Below, piece after piece: positions 11,039 to 18,237 of a DNA stretch of 64,000 nucleotides (position 1 is the stretch's first letter; each line of letters starts with the position of its first letter). This DNA comes from Ginsengibacter hankyongi (GTDB lineage Bacteria > Bacteroidota > Bacteroidia > Chitinophagales > Chitinophagaceae): NCBI RefSeq assembly GCF_008710285.1, contig NZ_VYQF01000012.1:1-64000 (forward strand), in the 5' to 3' direction. A program made the position numbers and the translations under genes. The notes below the pieces were generated by a model, which was not told where the DNA came from, searched no databases, and was given only the letters and a program-made list of their open reading frames with translations.

Positions 11039-12361
11039 TTAGCGCTTGGTTAATTCTATTTTACCTTTATTTGGATTTGCCTGGAATAAAACATACTTAC
11101 CGTTATCATCTTTTAATATTTCAGATTTTCGTGTTTTATTATTTTGATGAACATTTACACCTTTCCACGAAGCCGGAAGATATGTTTTTAAGGTAAGAGG
11201 CAAATTATATAAGCTTGTATCAAGCGAATGAAGCAGCGTGAGTGTAATTTTATTTTCACTTTTTTCTTGAGTTACTTTTACGGCCATTCTTTCACGCATG
11301 TATTTAGTAACATCTTTAAATGTGGCCACCCAAAGGCTGTCTTCTTTATTTTTTATGTATTGAAAGTACTCTACAAGTTCTTCATGATTTATGGGTTCCC
11401 ATCCAAGAGTGTCTATACCATGAAATACCAATACCAGCCAGATATTATTATGGGCCAACAGTGTATCTACCCACGATTTCATTACACTTAACTGCGTTTT
11501 AGATAGCGGCCCTCTTTGCCATTGCACATATTCTTTTTTTGACAAACCCGGTTGTTCTTTATATCCCCTGTTTATTTCCTGCAAATAAGGTTCAGGCATT
11601 TTATTTCTTAAAGCCGGGAATAGTTTTGATTGAAGTACGTATTCCATTACCCGCTCATCTTCCGTGCCGAAAGGAACTTCAGCAGAGAATGTATTTTCAT
11701 CTCCTAAATGAGTACGAATATCTTCTTTGCATTTTTGCAATTCGTAATACATATTAGGCGTATCAAGTATTGCCATATATGGGTGCGAAAGGGAATGGCA
11801 CGCAAACTCATGCCCCTGGGCGGCATAGCGTTTAAAATCGCTCCATGAGTTCTCAGCGCTTAATCCTGCTTCGTATGTTGTATCAATTCCGGGCTTAAAT
11901 AATCCGGCTAACGCCATGGTGTAAACGCTGTCTATAATTTTATAAGCTGCCTTCGGTTTTCCTTCTTCATACAATGAGCCTGCTCTGAAAAAATAATCCG
12001 TGGTTCCTTTATAACCGAGAAATTTTGCGGCGGAAGCCCTTTCGAAAAAATTATTTTTATTGGTGGAAACAGTTTTTGTTTCATTCATTATTTCTTTTAC
12101 CGGCCTGCCAATAAATTTTGCATGATACCGGGAACCTTTTATATCTCCTGTAACAATAAAAAATGTGCCTGGAAATTGAAGCCTGTTCATAATAGGTATG
12201 GCCTCTGTAAACTGAGTTGGAATGCCATCATCATATGTAATTGACACAGCCGCTTTTTTATCAAACTGCCATTTGGTGATTGTTGTCTGGCAGTAGCTTT
12301 CTTCATTTAGAAATAAAATACCTAAGAAACACAGACACGCTTTAACCGATAAAATATTCAT
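11039..12361 (-). CDS. Secreted polysaccharide deacetylase (NodB domain)
   Basis: This 440-aa protein has a signal peptide (LSVKACLCFLGILFL) and a NodB homology domain at about residues 35-260. The metal-binding elements of carbohydrate esterase family 4 appear as SITYDDGIP (Asp pair) and ACHSLSHP (His pair), and a large insertion separates them. A C-terminal beta-rich region (about 350-440) has no recognised domain. Such enzymes remove N- or O-acetyl groups from chitin-, peptidoglycan- or exopolysaccharide-type polymers in the periplasm. The gene stands alone, convergent to the SGNH hydrolase and divergent from the ABC transporter with about 195 bp between. Confidence 0.85.
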   Translation of the reverse strand: MNILSVKACLCFLGILFLNEESYCQTTITKWQFDKKAAVSITYDDGIPTQFTEAIPIMNRLQFPGTFFIVTGDIKGSRYHAKFIGRPVKEIMNETKTVSTNKNNFFERASAAKFLGYKGTTDYFFRAGSLYEEGKPKAAYKIIDSVYTMALAGLFKPGIDTTYEAGLSAENSWSDFKRYAAQGHEFACHSLSHPYMAILDTPNMYYELQKCKEDIRTHLGDENTFSAEVPFGTEDERVMEYVLQSKLFPALRNKMPEPYLQEINRGYKEQPGLSKKEYVQWQRGPLSKTQLSVMKSWVDTLLAHNNIWLVLVFHGIDTLGWEPINHEELVEYFQYIKNKEDSLWVATFKDVTKYMRERMAVKVTQEKSENKITLTLLHSLDTSLYNLPLTLKTYLPASWKGVNVHQNNKTRKSEILKDDNGKYVLFQANPNKGKIELTKR

Positions 12362-12555
12362 ATCCTGAAGTTTATTATGATCAATTGCATCTTGCGCTAA
12401 ATACTTCGAAAAAAAAAATGGACAGAGCCAATCTTATTTTCAATAGTTTAAAAATAAGTTTTATTACATTTTTAAAAAAGAGTTCTTCAGCTGGCTAAAC
12501 CCATCTCTTTTAAATTTCATATTTTTAATAACATTCTTAATGAAAAAATTATGCA

Positions 12556-13521
12556 ATGATTGTTGTTGATAGTGTTGTAAAGAAATTTGGAAATATAGCA
12601 GCAATTGACACTGTTTCATTTAAAGTAAATGAAGGAGAAAACGTTGTACTGCTTGGGACCAGTGGCTGTGGAAAAACAACGATGCTTCGCATGATCAACA
12701 GGCTTACAGAAACAACTTCAGGAAATATTTATATTAATGAGAAAAATATTAAAAACGTTCCGCCTGAGGAATTAAGAAGAAATATCGGATATGCATTGCA
12801 GCACAACGGGCTTTTTCCTCATTACACTATTGCTGAAAATATTGCGATAGTTCCCGAGTTGTTAAATTGGCCGAAAGAAAAAATCACTAAAAGAACTTCG
12901 GAATTATTAGAGCAACTACATCTTCCTCAAAATTATTTATCACTTTATCCGCAGGAGTTAAGCGGAGGTCAGCAACAGCGTGTAGGCCTTGCAAGAGCAT
13001 TGGCAGCTGATCCTCCTTTACTGTTAATGGATGAACCTTTTGGTGCGCTCGATGCAGTTACCCGTGCAAACATTACCAATGAATTCAGTAAGCTTGAAGT
13101 ACTGAAAAATAAAACGATTGTTTTGGTCACTCATGATATCCGTGAAGCATTTCAACTAGGTAACAAAATTTTATTGATGGATAAAGGGAAGGTAGTGCAG
13201 GAAGGCGCTGCGCCCGATTTGCTGTTTAATCCTGTTAATAATTTTGTCACCTCTTTTTTTGAAGATCAACGGATGCAACTTGAGTTAAACGCTGTTTTAC
13301 TAAAAGATATTTGGAACTATCTCCCGTCAATTAATCAGGAGGAAATAACAGACGGCATCATTGATATTGATAATAATATATGGCAGGCGCTTTATCTTTT
13401 ATTAAATAAAAAAAATAAAAGTATTGTATTGCATAATGCTTTAACAGCAGAAATGAAAACTGCGAATTACGATTCTTTGTTCACGGCGTTCAGCAATTAT
13501 AAACAACAGAGATATGAATGA
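12556..13521 (+). CDS. Betaine/ergothioneine-type ABC transporter ATP-binding subunit (OpuCA/EgtV-like)
   Basis: The 321-aa ATPase has Walker A GTSGCGKTTM (about residue 35), Q-loop, signature LSGGQQQRVGLARAL, Walker B LLLMDEPFGALD and switch His (VTHDIREAF). The sequence IAAIDTVSFKVNEGENVVLLG and QHNGLFPHYTIAENIA resemble the quaternary-amine (OpuCA/ProV) group. A C-terminal region of about 90 residues replaces the usual CBS pair and shows no clear CBS motif. It overlaps the permease gene by 8 bp. The downstream egtB-egtD pair raises the possibility that the substrate is ergothioneine or hercynine, as for the EgtV-EgtU transporter, rather than glycine betaine. Confidence 0.85.
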   Translation: MIVVDSVVKKFGNIAAIDTVSFKVNEGENVVLLGTSGCGKTTMLRMINRLTETTSGNIYINEKNIKNVPPEELRRNIGYALQHNGLFPHYTIAENIAIVPELLNWPKEKITKRTSELLEQLHLPQNYLSLYPQELSGGQQQRVGLARALAADPPLLLMDEPFGALDAVTRANITNEFSKLEVLKNKTIVLVTHDIREAFQLGNKILLMDKGKVVQEGAAPDLLFNPVNNFVTSFFEDQRMQLELNAVLLKDIWNYLPSINQEEITDGIIDIDNNIWQALYLLLNKKNKSIVLHNALTAEMKTANYDSLFTAFSNYKQQRYE

Positions 13522-15085
13522 ATCAACTCAATCGCTCTTTAGTTTTATGCGTGAACAATCTGGTAAAATTTTGGATCAATTGCTCGCGCATATTGGCCTT
13601 ACTTTTATTTCCTTATTAATAGCAGTAGCCATTGGTGTGCCTTTGGGAATTTTTATTGCAAAAAGAAAGAAACTATCCGGTACCGTTTTAGGTTTTGTTG
13701 GTGTATTACAAACCATACCAAGTATTGCATTACTTGGTTTTATGATTCCAATTCTCGGTATTGGACCAAAACCGGCGATAGTTGCTTTGTTTTTGTACGC
13801 ACTATTGCCTATTGTAAGAAATACCTTCACGGGAATTATGGGTGTGGATGCATCGGTAAGAGATGCAGCAAAGGGAATGGGCATGAGCGGTAAACAAATT
13901 CTTACGAAAGTAGAACTGCCTTTATCCTTGCCCGTTATACTCGCGGGAATTCGTACTGCAACAGTGATAAATGTAGGCGTGGCAACACTTGCAGCTTATA
14001 TAGCTGCAGGGGGCCTGGGAGAATTTATATTTGGGGGCATTGCATTAAACAATACCAATATGATTCTTGCAGGCGCAATTCCTGCAGCGTTACTTGCTAT
14101 CGTTCTTGATTTTATTTTATCAAAGGTTCAGAAGATTAATCTTAAAAAACTGCGGGCCGGTTTTTGGTTACTTCCGCTCAGCGTTATTCTTTTATCTTCT
14201 TTTTATTTATTGCCTGACATTTATGGAACTAAAATGCTTGCGGGTTTTACCCCTGAATTTATGGGAAGGGAAGATGGTTATCTCGGCCTTGAAAAAGTAT
14301 ATCATTTGCATATCAGGAATGTTGTTATCAGTGATGCTGTGATGTACAAAGCTGCTTATGAAAAAAAGTTAGATGTTATCAGCGGGTATAGCACCGATGG
14401 ACGCCTGAAGGCTTTTAATCTCGTTGTGTTGGATGATGATAAAAAAATATTTCCACCTTATTTTGTCGCACCGGTCATCCATGAAAGTATTTTACAGCAA
14501 CATCCTGAACTTGAAAATGTATTAAATCAACTAGCTGGTCGTATCAATGATTCTGTGATGACGGAATTAAATTATCGTGTTGATTATTTAAAGCAAAGTC
14601 CTGACAAAGTTGCCAAAGATTTTTTGATGGAACAAAGTTTGTATAAAGAACCACAAAACGGGAATGGAGAAGTAATAAGAATCGGGTCAAAAATATTTGG
14701 TGAACAATATATACTTGCATCAATGTATGCCATGCTGATTAAAGGCAATACCAATTTGCAGGTAGAAACAAAAACCGGGTTAGGAGGAACAAAAATTTGT
14801 TTTGATGCTTTAACGAATAACCAAATTGACATGTATCCTGAATACACGGGGACGGCATTATTGGTAATATTACAAGCTCAGGATTCCGTTCTAAAAAACC
14901 TGGGAGCGAATGAACAAAATATTTATGATTATGTGCAACAGAAGTTCCATGAGAAATATAATTTAAAATGGTTAAAACCTGTTGGGTTTAATAATTCGTA
15001 TTGTTTAATGATGCGAAGAGAACAATCGAAGCGAATAGGTGTTAATAGTATTTCCGGGCTTAAAAAATATCTTGATAAAAAATAG
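13514..15085 (+). CDS. Betaine-type ABC permease fused to a circularly permuted substrate-binding domain
   Basis: Residues about 15-235 form a six-helix permease (ASVRDAAKGMGMSGKQ contact loop, IRTATVINVGVATLAAYIAA). Residues about 240-523 form a ProX/OpuCC-type binding domain, but in reversed lobe order: the segment that is normally C-terminal (GFTPEFMGREDGYLGL, GYSTDGRLKAFNLVVLDDD, PELENVLNQLAGRI) comes first, and the normally N-terminal segment (IRIGSKIFGEQ, GLGGTKICFDAL, MYPEYTGTALL, LKWLKPVGFNNSYCL) comes last. A hydrophobic segment at about 215-232 anchors it to the inner membrane. Permease/binding-protein fusions are known in OpuC/EgtU-type transporters. The permutation is directly visible in the motif order. 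Cognate ATPase: the overlapping upstream gene. Confidence 0.85.
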   Translation: MNESTQSLFSFMREQSGKILDQLLAHIGLTFISLLIAVAIGVPLGIFIAKRKKLSGTVLGFVGVLQTIPSIALLGFMIPILGIGPKPAIVALFLYALLPIVRNTFTGIMGVDASVRDAAKGMGMSGKQILTKVELPLSLPVILAGIRTATVINVGVATLAAYIAAGGLGEFIFGGIALNNTNMILAGAIPAALLAIVLDFILSKVQKINLKKLRAGFWLLPLSVILLSSFYLLPDIYGTKMLAGFTPEFMGREDGYLGLEKVYHLHIRNVVISDAVMYKAAYEKKLDVISGYSTDGRLKAFNLVVLDDDKKIFPPYFVAPVIHESILQQHPELENVLNQLAGRINDSVMTELNYRVDYLKQSPDKVAKDFLMEQSLYKEPQNGNGEVIRIGSKIFGEQYILASMYAMLIKGNTNLQVETKTGLGGTKICFDALTNNQIDMYPEYTGTALLVILQAQDSVLKNLGANEQNIYDYVQQKFHEKYNLKWLKPVGFNNSYCLMMRREQSKRIGVNSISGLKKYLDKK

Positions 15086-15086
15086 G

Positions 15087-15117
15087 CCTCACCCCCAACC
15101 CTCTGCGGGGGAGAGGG
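15087..15117. repeat. REP-like hairpin repeat
   Basis: Immediately after the permease stop, cctcacccccaacc is followed by CCCTCT (15099-15104) and AGAGGG (15112-15117), a 6-bp stem with a G-rich loop. It resembles the element at 9214-9246 and separates the transporter genes from egtB; it may stabilise the transporter mRNA or be a dispersed repeat. Confidence 0.5.
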
Positions 15118-15187
15118 AATAAAATTACCGGGCAAGTTTATAATAACTTGTAAACTTTAGTTTGGTGAGAACGATAAAAGATAATTT

Positions 15188-16342
15188 ATGGATTTATTAA
15201 AAAAATATATAGAAGTAAGAAACCATTCGGAAGAAATATGCAAGCCGTTGCAGACTGAAGATTATGTTGTTCAGCCAATAGTTGACGTAAGTCCACCTAA
15301 GTGGCACATTGGGCATACCACCTGGTTTTTTGAAACCTTCATTCTGAAACCGAATATGGAAAAGTACGAGGAGTTTGACCCACAATATAATTATGTATTC
15401 AACAGCTATTATGAGACAGTTGGCGTCAGGGTAATACGAACAGACAGGGGAAATTTAAGCAGGCCGACTGTGGAAGATATTTACAAATTTCGCAGACATG
15501 TTGATAATGCTATGAATGAATTTTTGCAAAAGCCACTGACGAAGGAACTGGAAGAATTAATTGAACTGGGCCTCAATCACGAACAACAGCACCAGGAACT
15601 TTTAGCAACTGATATTAAATATATTTTAGGAAATAATCCGTTGTTTCCTCCCTATAAATTTGAGGTTGGTAAAAGTCAAAATAATATTCAGACAAAAAAT
15701 AATGATTTTCTCAAGGTCAAAAAAGGTATTTATAAAATCGGGTATGAAGGAGATGATTTTTGTTTCGATAATGAATTAAGCAGGCATGAAGTACTGTTGC
15801 AGGACTTCAGTATTGCAAATAATCTTGTTACCAATGGAGAGTTTATGGAATTTATGGATGCGGGCGGTTATAAAAATTTTAATTACTGGCACGCTGAAGG
15901 TTGGGACTGGGTTAAGACCAATAATATCAATTCGCCGCTTTATTGGCATTTCATTAATGGCGAATGGTTTAATTACACTTTACAGGGTTTGCAGAAAATC
16001 GCTTTAAATAAACCCTTATGCCACATAAGTTTTTATGAAGCATCGGCGTATGCATCATGGAAGGGAATGCGCCTGCCTACTGAGTTTGAATGGGAAATTG
16101 CCGCGCAACAATTTGAGTGGGGACAAAGGTGGGAATGGACTGAAAGTGCTTACCTGCCTTATCCTGGTTTTTCAAAAGCACCAGGCGCAATTGGAGAATA
16201 CAATGGAAAATTTATGGTGAATCAACAAGTGTTACGTGGAGCATCGGAAGTAACTCCCGAAGGACATAGCAGAATAACTTATCGTAATTTTTTTCATCCC
16301 CATTTACGCTGGCAATACACAGGGGTAAGATTGGCACAATAA
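15188..16342 (+). CDS. egtB: Ergothioneine biosynthesis sulfoxide synthase EgtB
   Basis: EgtB is a mononuclear non-haem iron enzyme that couples hercynine with a thiol donor (gamma-glutamylcysteine or cysteine) using oxygen. The 384-aa sequence has an N-terminal DinB-like helical domain with the iron ligands in WHIGH (His43) and NHEQQHQE (His131, His135), plus the WFFETF motif. The C-terminal half is a formylglycine-generating-enzyme-like (SUMF1) domain: ANNLVTNGEFMEFM-like sequence, FYEASAYASWKGMRLPTEFEWE and LRWQYTGVRLA at the end. It lies 16 bp upstream of egtD. No EgtC glutaminase is nearby, so the thiol donor cannot be assigned. Confidence 0.93.
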   Translation: MDLLKKYIEVRNHSEEICKPLQTEDYVVQPIVDVSPPKWHIGHTTWFFETFILKPNMEKYEEFDPQYNYVFNSYYETVGVRVIRTDRGNLSRPTVEDIYKFRRHVDNAMNEFLQKPLTKELEELIELGLNHEQQHQELLATDIKYILGNNPLFPPYKFEVGKSQNNIQTKNNDFLKVKKGIYKIGYEGDDFCFDNELSRHEVLLQDFSIANNLVTNGEFMEFMDAGGYKNFNYWHAEGWDWVKTNNINSPLYWHFINGEWFNYTLQGLQKIALNKPLCHISFYEASAYASWKGMRLPTEFEWEIAAQQFEWGQRWEWTESAYLPYPGFSKAPGAIGEYNGKFMVNQQVLRGASEVTPEGHSRITYRNFFHPHLRWQYTGVRLAQ

Positions 16343-16358
16343 TATGTTATGAAGTAAA

Positions 16359-17309
16359 ATGAATGTGATGAACCAATTTTTACAGGATGTCTTAAAGGGA
16401 TTACAATCATCTCCAAAATATTTACAATCGAAATATTTTTATGACAAGAAGGGCGATGAATTATTTCAAAAGATTATGCAATGCGAAGAATATTATCTTA
16501 CCAATTGTGAGATGGAAATATTCTCTACACAAACTGCCGCACTTGCTGATATTATTATTGACCAGCATAACAGTTTTGATGTAGTTGAATTAGGTCCGGG
16601 TGATGCGGTAAAATCATTATATCTTTTAAAAGAACTGGCCGGTAAAAATGCAATTGATACTTATTTTCCTGTTGATATTTCTAATAATATAATTGATCTT
16701 CTTCAAAAAAAGCTTCCTGAACAATTGCCAAAACTCAATATTCACGGGCTTAACGGGGAATATCTTTCGATGCTTACTTCTGCAAAAAAAATTTCTGATA
16801 AAATAAAACTGGTATTATTTCTTGGTTCTAATATTGGAAATATTCCAAAGGAAGAGGTGAATGAATTTTGCAGGCAAATACGCAGCCAGCTTTCCATTGG
16901 CGATATGGTTCTAATTGGAATTGATCTTAAAAAAAATCCAAAGCAAATTCGTTTAGCCTACGACGATAGTAATGGATATACACGTGAATTTAATCTTAAT
17001 CTTTTAAGGAGAATTAACAGGGAATTAGGCGGCAACTTTGTAATAGAAGATTTCGAGCACTATGCAACTTACGATCCTATAACCGGCGCTTGTAGGAGTT
17101 TCCTGGTTTCTTTAAAAGATCAGCAAGTGACTATCGGCAACCATGCATCGTTTAATTTTTTAAAAAACGAAACGGTCTTCATGGAAATTTCTCAAAAATA
17201 TTCTATTGAACAAACTGATGAAATAGCCAGCCAAAGCGGTTTTGAACCTGTAGCTCATTTCTTTGATAAGAATAAATGGTTTACTGATGTAATTTGGAAA
17301 TGCGTTTGA
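16359..17309 (+). CDS. egtD: L-histidine N(alpha)-methyltransferase EgtD
   Basis: EgtD makes hercynine (trimethylhistidine betaine) from histidine and three S-adenosylmethionine, the first step of ergothioneine synthesis. The 316-aa sequence shows the family opening SPKYLQSKYFYDKKGDELF, CEEYYLTNCEMEI, the AdoMet motif VVELGPGDAVKS (about residue 77), PVDISNNII, and LVLFLGSNIGNIPKEE. The C-terminal lobe carries the histidine-binding region (FNLNLLRRINRELGG, YDPITGACRSFLVS). It follows egtB with a 16-bp gap and has no partner gene downstream; egtE-type PLP lyase is not in the window, so the last step must be encoded elsewhere. Confidence 0.94.
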   Translation: MNVMNQFLQDVLKGLQSSPKYLQSKYFYDKKGDELFQKIMQCEEYYLTNCEMEIFSTQTAALADIIIDQHNSFDVVELGPGDAVKSLYLLKELAGKNAIDTYFPVDISNNIIDLLQKKLPEQLPKLNIHGLNGEYLSMLTSAKKISDKIKLVLFLGSNIGNIPKEEVNEFCRQIRSQLSIGDMVLIGIDLKKNPKQIRLAYDDSNGYTREFNLNLLRRINRELGGNFVIEDFEHYATYDPITGACRSFLVSLKDQQVTIGNHASFNFLKNETVFMEISQKYSIEQTDEIASQSGFEPVAHFFDKNKWFTDVIWKCV

Positions 17310-17349
17310 AAATATGAATTATGAGTTACGTAAATTCTTTTTAACGTTG

Positions 17350-18237
17350 CTAACTGTTCTTTACCAAAAGGTTTAACTGAGAGGGAATAATTTTCGCAAT
17401 TACTTTATCAATCTTCCCTTTATATTCTCCATCAATCTGGAAATGAGTTTTTCTCTTTAACGTTATAGTTGCATTTTTTGTTTGAAAAACCTCCACCTTT
17501 TTCGGGTTAAACTTTTTATAGCTTAAGAGCATCTTAAATAATTCCCAAACGGGAAACTTCCGGAACACTACAATTTCAAATTGGCCATCGCCTAAAAGGC
17601 CTTCAGGGTTAACCAGAGCGCCCGTGCCGTATTTGCTTGCATTTGCAATTACCACCATGTAGGCGTTCGTTCTAAAATCTTTATCATCTGTTACAATGTG
17701 TGCGCTCAATAATTTTTTTCGCCATAGTACTTTAATTACCATTCTTGCATAGCCCCACATTCCCCGCAATGGGTTTTCCTCAAAATATTTTATCAGTTGA
17801 GCGTTCATTCCAAAGTCACTTAAATGGAGGCTGATATCGTCGTCGTTTATTTTTATTATGTCACAACATTTTATCTTTCCATTTATAATAATATCCAATG
17901 CTTCTGCAGGGTCTTCAGGAATGCCCAATTCTTTCGCCATACCATTTGCAGAACCCGCAGGCAAAATACCCATGGTTAAATTTGTTCCAAATAATTGTTT
18001 TGCTAATAAAGAAACGGTGCCATCTCCGCCTACCGCTACAATCCTGTTAATTTGTAATTTTTCAATCCAATACTTAATTGATCCGGTATCATCTTTGTCT
18101 TTTAAAATATAAATTTCTATGGTATGCTTAAGATTTTTAAAATAATCCCGTATGGCAGTTTCCCAATTAATTTTTTTCTTTCCTCCAGACACCGGATTGA
18201 GAACGAATAATATTTTGAGATTAGCCGGATTTTCCAT
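17350..18237 (-). CDS. Diacylglycerol-kinase-family lipid kinase
   Basis: The 295-aa protein matches YegS/BmrU/DgkB lipid kinases. The nucleotide-binding signature VAVGGDGTVSLLAKQL (about residue 70) and MGILPAGSANGMAKELGIP are intact, and NPVSGGKKK forms the N-terminal phosphate loop. The second domain (ADFGMNAQLIKYFEE-like, YMVVIANASKYGTGALVNP) is typical. These enzymes phosphorylate diacylglycerol or sphingoid lipids at the cytoplasmic membrane. The gene is divergent from an App1-type phosphatidate phosphatase with only 20 bp between the two start codons. Confidence 0.9.
   Translation of the reverse strand: MENPANLKILFVLNPVSGGKKKINWETAIRDYFKNLKHTIEIYILKDKDDTGSIKYWIEKLQINRIVAVGGDGTVSLLAKQLFGTNLTMGILPAGSANGMAKELGIPEDPAEALDIIINGKIKCCDIIKINDDDISLHLSDFGMNAQLIKYFEENPLRGMWGYARMVIKVLWRKKLLSAHIVTDDKDFRTNAYMVVIANASKYGTGALVNPEGLLGDGQFEIVVFRKFPVWELFKMLLSYKKFNPKKVEVFQTKNATITLKRKTHFQIDGEYKGKIDKVIAKIIPSQLNLLVKNS

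What the first reader, a model, noticed from the sequence alone, without database searches (positions are those of the whole stretch)
12556..17309. Betaine-type ABC transporter directly coupled to egtB and egtD
The ATPase and permease/binding-protein fusion are followed on the same strand by egtB and egtD, with only a 100-bp gap carrying one repeat. EgtU/EgtV transporters for ergothioneine have the same two-gene plan, a QAT-type ATPase and a fused permease-binding protein. Ergothioneine and its precursor hercynine are betaines. The simplest reading is that this operon both makes and imports ergothioneine, or recovers hercynine; in most bacteria the two functions are separate.
Basis: partly seen in the sequence, partly recalled or inferred. 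Interest (0 to 1): 0.72.

Follow-up and report, generated by a model that had tools for sequence, protein, structure and literature searches.

The report
Ergothioneine operon with its own importer
A Bacteroidota bacterium keeps the genes that make the antioxidant ergothioneine in one conserved gene cluster with an importer of the betaine-uptake type, whose binding domain has its two halves in swapped order and lacks key residues of the known ergothioneine importers, so its cargo is probably ergothioneine or its precursor hercynine but remains to be measured.

Summary
In 394 genomes of the family, all 51 with this transporter also have egtB (65 have it overall); egtB follows within 1 kb at 42 of 52 transporter loci. 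In a second, partly overlapping collection egtB lies downstream at 78 of the 80 closest relatives. A functional tie to the ergothioneine (ET) pathway is well supported. Calling it EgtU is not. At the published ET-specificity positions (G244, F293, Y337) the protein has F, Y and F, as in the glycine-betaine binder AfProX; none of 112 distinct relatives has the EgtU pattern, while three Firmicutes controls do. AlphaFold models it well (pLDDT 91); its best full-length structural match is OpuAC, itself a known permutant. A second arrangement exists in other Bacteroidota and is sometimes next to egtB too. Best reading: an ABC importer of a histidine betaine (ET and/or hercynine) in cells that make ET. 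Sequence cannot say which ligand, or at what affinity.

The parts
12556..13521 (+). ATPase of a betaine/QAC-type ABC importer (321 aa)
   Evidence: Pfam ABC_tran 127.6 bits; best NCBIfam match proV 289.6 bits, under its 326.6 cut-off; Walker A, LSGGQ, Walker B and switch motifs; best PDB match 7ahc, a glycine betaine transport ATPase
13514..15085 (+). Permease fused to a circularly permuted substrate-binding domain, 523 aa, order TMD - C-half - N-half
   Evidence: Pfam; permuted alignment to EgtUC; halves searched apart; 24-member alignment
13514..14149 (+). Transmembrane domain, residues 1-212
   Evidence: BPD_transp_1 at residues 41-214; hydrophobic segments
14228..14647 (+). C-half of the binding domain (residues 239-378), encoded first; carries E248, R252, Y292, Y316
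   Evidence: residues 241-378 match EgtUC chain residues 139-276, 131 bits
14675..15070 (+). N-half of the binding domain (residues 388-519), encoded last; carries K393, F395, G425, T426, Y444, T447, F492, N494, Y496
   Evidence: best PDB match AfProX 1sw1, 84 bits; wild-type EgtUC 66 bits
15086..15187 (+). Gap with a single-copy hairpin; RNA of 15083-15190 folds better than its shuffles (z -3.35)
   Evidence: no Rfam match in 12300-17600 at gathering score
15188..16342 (+). egtB, hercynine sulfoxide synthase
   Evidence: TIGR03440 548 bits; PDB EgtB 8qf6/6qki/6o6l (Cabther) about 433 bits; H.GHT and HEQQH motifs
16359..17309 (+). egtD, histidine N-alpha-methyltransferase
   Evidence: Methyltransf_33 322 bits; PDB EgtD 7scf/4uy6 about 124-127 bits; TIGR03438 just under cut-off

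Best explanation
A conserved Bacteroidota gene cluster: a type I ABC importer with its betaine-binding domain tethered to the permease, encoded with egtB and egtD. The binding domain catches a trimethylammonium carboxylate in an aromatic cage (four Tyr and an Asn), with K, T, E and R placed to hold the carboxylate and the rest of the ligand. It closes on the permease, and the ATPase drives uptake. The cargo is most likely a histidine betaine: ergothioneine recaptured from outside, or hercynine (trimethylhistidine) fed to EgtB, or both. Shown: gene order, conservation, co-occurrence, pocket residues by alignment, permuted order, a confident model of the permuted domain. Inferred: co-transcription, direction of transport, ligand.
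For: 51 of 51 transporter genomes have EgtB, against 65 of 394 overall. EgtB within 1 kb downstream on the same strand at 42 of 52 loci. In a second collection, partly overlapping (12 of 80 proteins identical to ones already seen), EgtB is downstream at 78 of 80 loci, those 80 being the closest relatives; the other two are a contig end (L158) and Flavobacterium sp. NRK1 (L136), whose genome carries egtB-egtD elsewhere. The tie survives rearrangement: egtD-egtB or egtB-egtD upstream (L168, L170, L171; L198), and egtB on other contigs. Pocket positions K242, T275, T296, N339, Y341, E375, R379 and Y443 are kept in 112 of 112 distinct relatives. SBD model pLDDT 91.1, pTM 0.87.
Against: The ET-specificity residues are missing; in SpEgtUC, G244F alone costs about 100-fold in ET affinity (PMC9732360). 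AfProX, a glycine-betaine binder, is the closest solved protein for the N-half. Genomes are related, so the co-occurrence figures are not independent trials. Among close relatives, G005, G014 and G020 have the ATPase and fusion without egtBD in the stretch fetched. Two genomes hold the transporter with an EgtD relative but no EgtB (G496, G771) and one (G540) has only weak EgtB and EgtD relatives. No binding, uptake or transcript was measured.
Confidence: 0.62

Rival explanations
1. A glycine betaine or broad osmolyte importer that shares a gene cluster with the ET genes because ET or hercynine is used as a stress solute; the ligand is not an ET-pathway metabolite.
For: AfProX-type residues at three discriminating positions in nearly all relatives; N-half closest to AfProX among solved proteins. 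A 2025 paper suggests that ET may act as a compatible solute in C. glutamicum and that BetP may import it (PMC12689799, passages).
Against: An osmolyte importer is useful without egtB, yet 51 of 51 transporter genomes in the family sample have egtB. Position 339 is N, as in EgtU and the choline-type sensor precursor, where AfProX has D.
Confidence: 0.22
2. A true EgtU ortholog: a high-affinity importer specific for ergothioneine, as in Firmicutes.
For: Same two-gene plan; C-half closest to EgtUC among solved proteins; T274G and I243P mutants of SpEgtUC were crystallised with ET bound (PDB titles), so the T274-to-G change seen here is tolerated.
Against: G244, F293 and Y337 all replaced, while three Firmicutes homologues read with the same models show G, F, Y; permuted domain order; permuted proteins form their own clade, local support 0.993.
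Confidence: 0.1
3. Neighbourhood without function: the transporter and egtBD travel together but serve unrelated tasks.
For: Gene clusters can move as a block between Bacteroidota (recalled); 14 of 65 EgtB genomes do without the transporter.
Against: Co-occurrence holds where the genes are on different contigs (G014, G020, G082, G134) and where the order is changed; a second domain arrangement is also next to egtB in several genomes.
Confidence: 0.06

Closest known systems
EgtU (EgtUA/EgtUBC) of Firmicutes, ergothioneine importer (PMC9732360; PDB 7txl)
   Same: ATPase plus permease-SBD fusion; F-III aromatic cage; C-half about 131 bits
   Different: EgtU is TMD-N-half-C-half with G244/F293/Y337; this is TMD-C-half-N-half with F/Y/F and lies in an ET biosynthesis gene cluster
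AfProX (PDB 1sw1), glycine betaine binder
   Same: GSK.F.EQYIL motif, Tyr at the cage position that is F293 in EgtU; closest solved protein for the N-half
   Different: not fused and in native order; D instead of N at the cage base
OpuAC of B. subtilis (PDB 2b4m) and the related SBD of L. lactis OpuA
   Same: permuted topology; OpuAC is the best full-length Foldseek match (TM 0.64/0.69)
   Different: 14-15% identity; Trp-based cage according to PMC9732360, Tyr here; by sequence this SBD belongs to the ProX/EgtU lineage
Helicobacter pylori EgtU (PDB 8dp6/8dp7, the latter with ET bound)
   Same: betaine-type SBD; PMC9732360 refers to H. pylori work on ET uptake with lower affinity
   Different: its pocket residues could not be displayed here, so the comparison is open

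Membership tests
EgtU ergothioneine importer | ATPase gene next to a permease-SBD fusion | tested here: met
EgtU ergothioneine importer | F-III aromatic cage and carboxylate Lys | tested here: met
   K393, Y444, N494, Y496, Y292, Y316 by alignment
EgtU ergothioneine importer | ET determinants G244, F293, Y337 | tested here: not met
   F395, Y444, F492 in the window; full G/F/Y pattern in 0 of 112 distinct permuted relatives and 0 of 12 NCT proteins (one not scorable at 337); 3 of 3 Firmicutes controls G/F/Y, 0 of 2 Fusobacteriota homologues
EgtU ergothioneine importer | domain order TMD-N-half-C-half | tested here: not met
   TMD-C-half-N-half
EgtU ergothioneine importer | binds ET and rejects hercynine | not testable with these tools
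   needs ITC or an uptake assay
F-III quaternary-amine binding domains (ProX/OpuBC/EgtU) | sequence homology over both halves | tested here: met
   PF04069 188.9 bits; PDB searches by halves
OpuA/OpuAC betaine binders | permuted lobe order | tested here: met
   full-length Foldseek match of the model to 2b4m
OpuA/OpuAC betaine binders | Trp-based cage | tested here: not met
   cage positions are Tyr; Trp use by OpuAC as stated in PMC9732360
EgtB | TIGR03440 above cut-off | tested here: met
   548 against 360 bits
EgtD | TIGR03438 above cut-off | tested here: inconclusive
   288.1 against 290.9 bits; Pfam Methyltransf_33 322 against 23 bits

The most novel reading that the evidence does not exclude
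A dedicated hercynine (trimethylhistidine) importer: cells salvage the precursor released by other organisms and finish it with EgtB. This would explain why the transporter is so rarely found without egtB and why residues tied to ET specificity in EgtU are absent. It uses a circularly permuted binding domain in which the other lobe is tethered to the membrane.
Probability: 0.3. Interest if true: 0.75.

Novelty: new variant of a known kind. Interest (0 to 1): 0.57.

Why it matters
EgtU was described as the way for bacteria that do not make ET to obtain it (PMC9732360). A conserved gene cluster that both makes and takes up a histidine betaine would show that producers also scavenge, either recapturing lost ET or feeding on hercynine from neighbours. 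It gives a ready set of proteins (permuted and native order, AfProX-like pocket) to test how a betaine pocket is tuned between glycine betaine, hercynine and ET, and a natural circular permutation in which the same fold is tethered by its other lobe.

Tried and rejected
EgtU membership: rejected on pocket and domain order. A dispersed repeat in the gap: rejected, single copy. Known riboswitch or other RNA family: no Rfam match in 12300-17600 at gathering score. Another betaine-type importer beside egtBD in family genomes that lack this one: in the fetched egtBD loci without it (L172-L192) tblastn with the window's ATPase and fusion protein gave nothing above 60 bits. The open reading frames of 12 of these loci were only looked at by eye and no family search was run on them, so other transporter types are not excluded. 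Reading the H. pylori EgtU pocket: five PDB searches did not bring 8dp6 into the five (three) printed alignments, so it stays open. The full-length structure model is weaker (pLDDT 75.9, below 50 in parts of the membrane domain) and was not used. Literature: ten searches listed no paper whose title or abstract start describes this gene cluster; the library holds open-licence papers only. The H. pylori EgtUV paper was not among the listings, and I know it only by recall and through PMC9732360. Papers seen: PMC9732360 (abstract, passages, sections 8, 9, 13, 14), PMC2395249 (passages and section 11), PMC2861598 (passages), PMC12689799 (passages), PMC9516567 (passages); all others as search listings only.
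Full report
What is there. Four genes on the + strand: ATPase 12556-13521, permease/binding-protein fusion 13514-15085, egtB 15188-16342, egtD 16359-17309. EgtB resembles the solved EgtB labelled Cabther best and keeps the H.GHT and HEQQH motifs (that these hold the iron is recalled). EgtD falls just under its NCBIfam cut-off but is far above the Pfam one, and its solved relatives are EgtD. The gap before egtB is 102 nt; its 'repeat' is single copy and can form a hairpin.

The cluster is conserved. Among 39 relatives, G007 and G003 (split over two contigs) show the same four genes, while G005, G014 and G020 have the ATPase and fusion without egtBD in the stretches fetched. In 394 genomes of the window's family the fusion protein was found in 51 (52 loci; E up to 1e-30), EgtB in 65 (1e-30) and EgtD in 64 (1e-20). 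All 51 transporter genomes have EgtB and 50 have EgtD; in the exception, G185, the contig ends inside egtB. EgtB lies within 1 kb downstream on the same strand at 42 of 52 loci, median gap 26.5 nt, and EgtD follows within 3 kb at 38. Of the 52 loci one is of the other architecture (G250) and three are cut by contig ends (G067, G261, G356). One search prints 65 genomes with EgtD and none lacking it because of a script artefact; 64, and 50 of 51, are right. Fisher's test gave 1e-51, but it takes genomes as independent, which they are not. By genus, the transporter occurs in 19 of 101 and EgtB in 27 of 101.

In a separate scan with organism names, the 80 best of 561 relatives were kept, from a capped candidate list (Mucilaginibacter, Pedobacter, Chitinophaga, Segetibacter, Parafilimonas, Dyadobacter, Flavobacterium and others). 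EgtB lies downstream on the same strand in 78 of 80 (77 within 1 kb), EgtD in 74, the ATPase upstream in 77, and all four genes in order in 72 (recount). Most gaps are contig ends; L158 ends before egtB, and L136 (Flavobacterium sp. NRK1) has egtB-egtD elsewhere in its genome. This set is not independent: 12 of its 80 proteins are identical to ones of the family sample, and as a top-80 list it leans towards close relatives. Contig lengths shared between the two sets place the family by name: G041:C32 and Parafilimonas terrae, G254:C9 and Segetibacter koreensis; that these are Chitinophagaceae is recalled.

The tie is more than one inherited string of genes. The order differs in several genomes: egtD-egtB upstream of the ATPase (G202), egtB-egtD upstream (G411, G369, G695), egtD upstream and egtB downstream (G317). 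In G014, G020, G082 and G134 egtB sits on another contig, yet it is present. The reverse does not hold: 14 of 65 EgtB genomes lack the transporter.

A permuted binding domain. Against solved structures, residues 241-378 align to the C-half of EgtUC (139-276) and residues 388-519 to its N-half (8-135). So the order is permease, C-half, N-half, called TCN here. I found it in 112 distinct proteins in which all three segments were detected. AlphaFold on the domain alone gives pLDDT 91.1 and pTM 0.87. Foldseek's best match is B. subtilis OpuAC over the full length (TM 0.64/0.69, rmsd 4.7, 14% identity), while EgtUC matches over one half only, at 41-45% identity. That OpuAC and ProX are circular permutants of one another is published (PMC2395249, section 11 read). 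In a tree of aligned segments from 54 proteins (38 of 112 TCN, 11 of 12 NCT, 5 native-order comparators) the permuted proteins form one clade, local support 0.993, so one permutation event suffices. By the published lobe limits of SpEgtUC (D2 = 341-432) the new tether enters lobe D2, where EgtU is tethered through D1; this is inference.

A second arrangement. In G250 the gene before egtB encodes N-half, C-half, permease, after what looks like a signal peptide by eye (NCT), and Pfam confirms binding domain before permease. In a sample of 375 genomes of the phylum, 71 have some match to the fusion protein: 20 are TCN over the full length; 30 have the permease part at 45-57% identity inside a frame of about 490-600 aa, which I class as NCT, eleven of them read in full; the rest are weaker permease matches. 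None has both. EgtB (E up to 1e-40) is present in 17 of 20 and 24 of 30, against 106 of 375 overall; it lies within 10 kb in 13 of 20, all on the same strand, but in only 6 of 30, three of them on the opposite strand. TCN without EgtB: G496 and G771, which carry an EgtD relative next to a DUF427-like protein near the transporter (Pfam run on the G496 one only), and G540, which has weak EgtB and EgtD relatives. NCT without EgtB: six genomes, of which I checked three: G558 has neither gene; G559 and G610 have an EgtD relative, and G610 also a marginal EgtB match. So for NCT the tie is weaker and may partly be shared descent.

The pocket. I read 14 positions named in the SpEgtUC paper (sections 8, 9, 13 and 14 read). 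SpEgtU is K I G T T F T Y N Y E R Y Y. The window protein is K I F G T Y T F N Y E R Y Y. Over 112 distinct TCN proteins: position 244 is F in 108 and Q in 4; position 293 is Y in 112; position 337 is F in 111 and Y in 1; K242, E375, R379 and N339 are kept in 112; Y419 is S in 7. The 12 NCT proteins read F at 244 and Y at 293 in 12, and F at 337 in the 11 that could be scored. As a control, three Firmicutes homologues (E. faecalis, L. mali, Niallia) read with the same models gave G, F, Y at the three positions and native order; two Fusobacteriota homologues, also native order, gave F, Y, F and Y, Y, F. The paper states that AfProX has F in place of G244 and a Y/F pair in place of F293/Y337, that G244F costs about 100-fold in ET affinity, that homologues outside the EgtU subcluster lack these determinants, and that some of the wider cluster carry ET in H. 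pylori at lower affinity. So the pocket speaks against EgtU-like specificity, but not against ET or hercynine as such.

Which ligand. The genomic tie argues for an ET-pathway betaine. An ET importer would be useful without EgtB, as in Firmicutes, whereas hercynine is useful mainly with EgtB; the rule 'no transporter without EgtB' (51 of 51 in the family sample) leans towards hercynine. G496 and G771, with EgtD but no EgtB, do not fit a simple hercynine-to-EgtB route, unless another enzyme adds the sulfur (EanB and MES are known alternatives, PMC9516567, passages; I did not search for them). I therefore leave ET and hercynine side by side.

Noticed in passing
L196 4413-8710 and L195 6614-14388: EgtD relative, a DUF427 (PF04248 in L196) protein and a permuted transporter together in genomes with no EgtB match; DUF427 may belong to an EgtB-free route.
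   Followed up: partly
L167 3837-5309; L203-L213: Second architecture of the same transporter family: N-half, C-half, permease (NCT).
   Followed up: partly
G411 (L170, L172, L173): One genome with two permuted transporters and three egtB-egtD pairs.
   Followed up: no
window 15083-15190: RNA of the gap folds better than all 200 shuffles (z -3.35), two hairpins before egtB; possible attenuation or processing site.
   Followed up: partly
G495:C1:109234-110793; G333:C57:8032-8817: An in-frame TAA in one permuted transporter gene and a TGA in one egtD: decay or sequencing error.
   Followed up: no
L094: Contig with egtB pieces on both strands, probably a misassembly.
   Followed up: no
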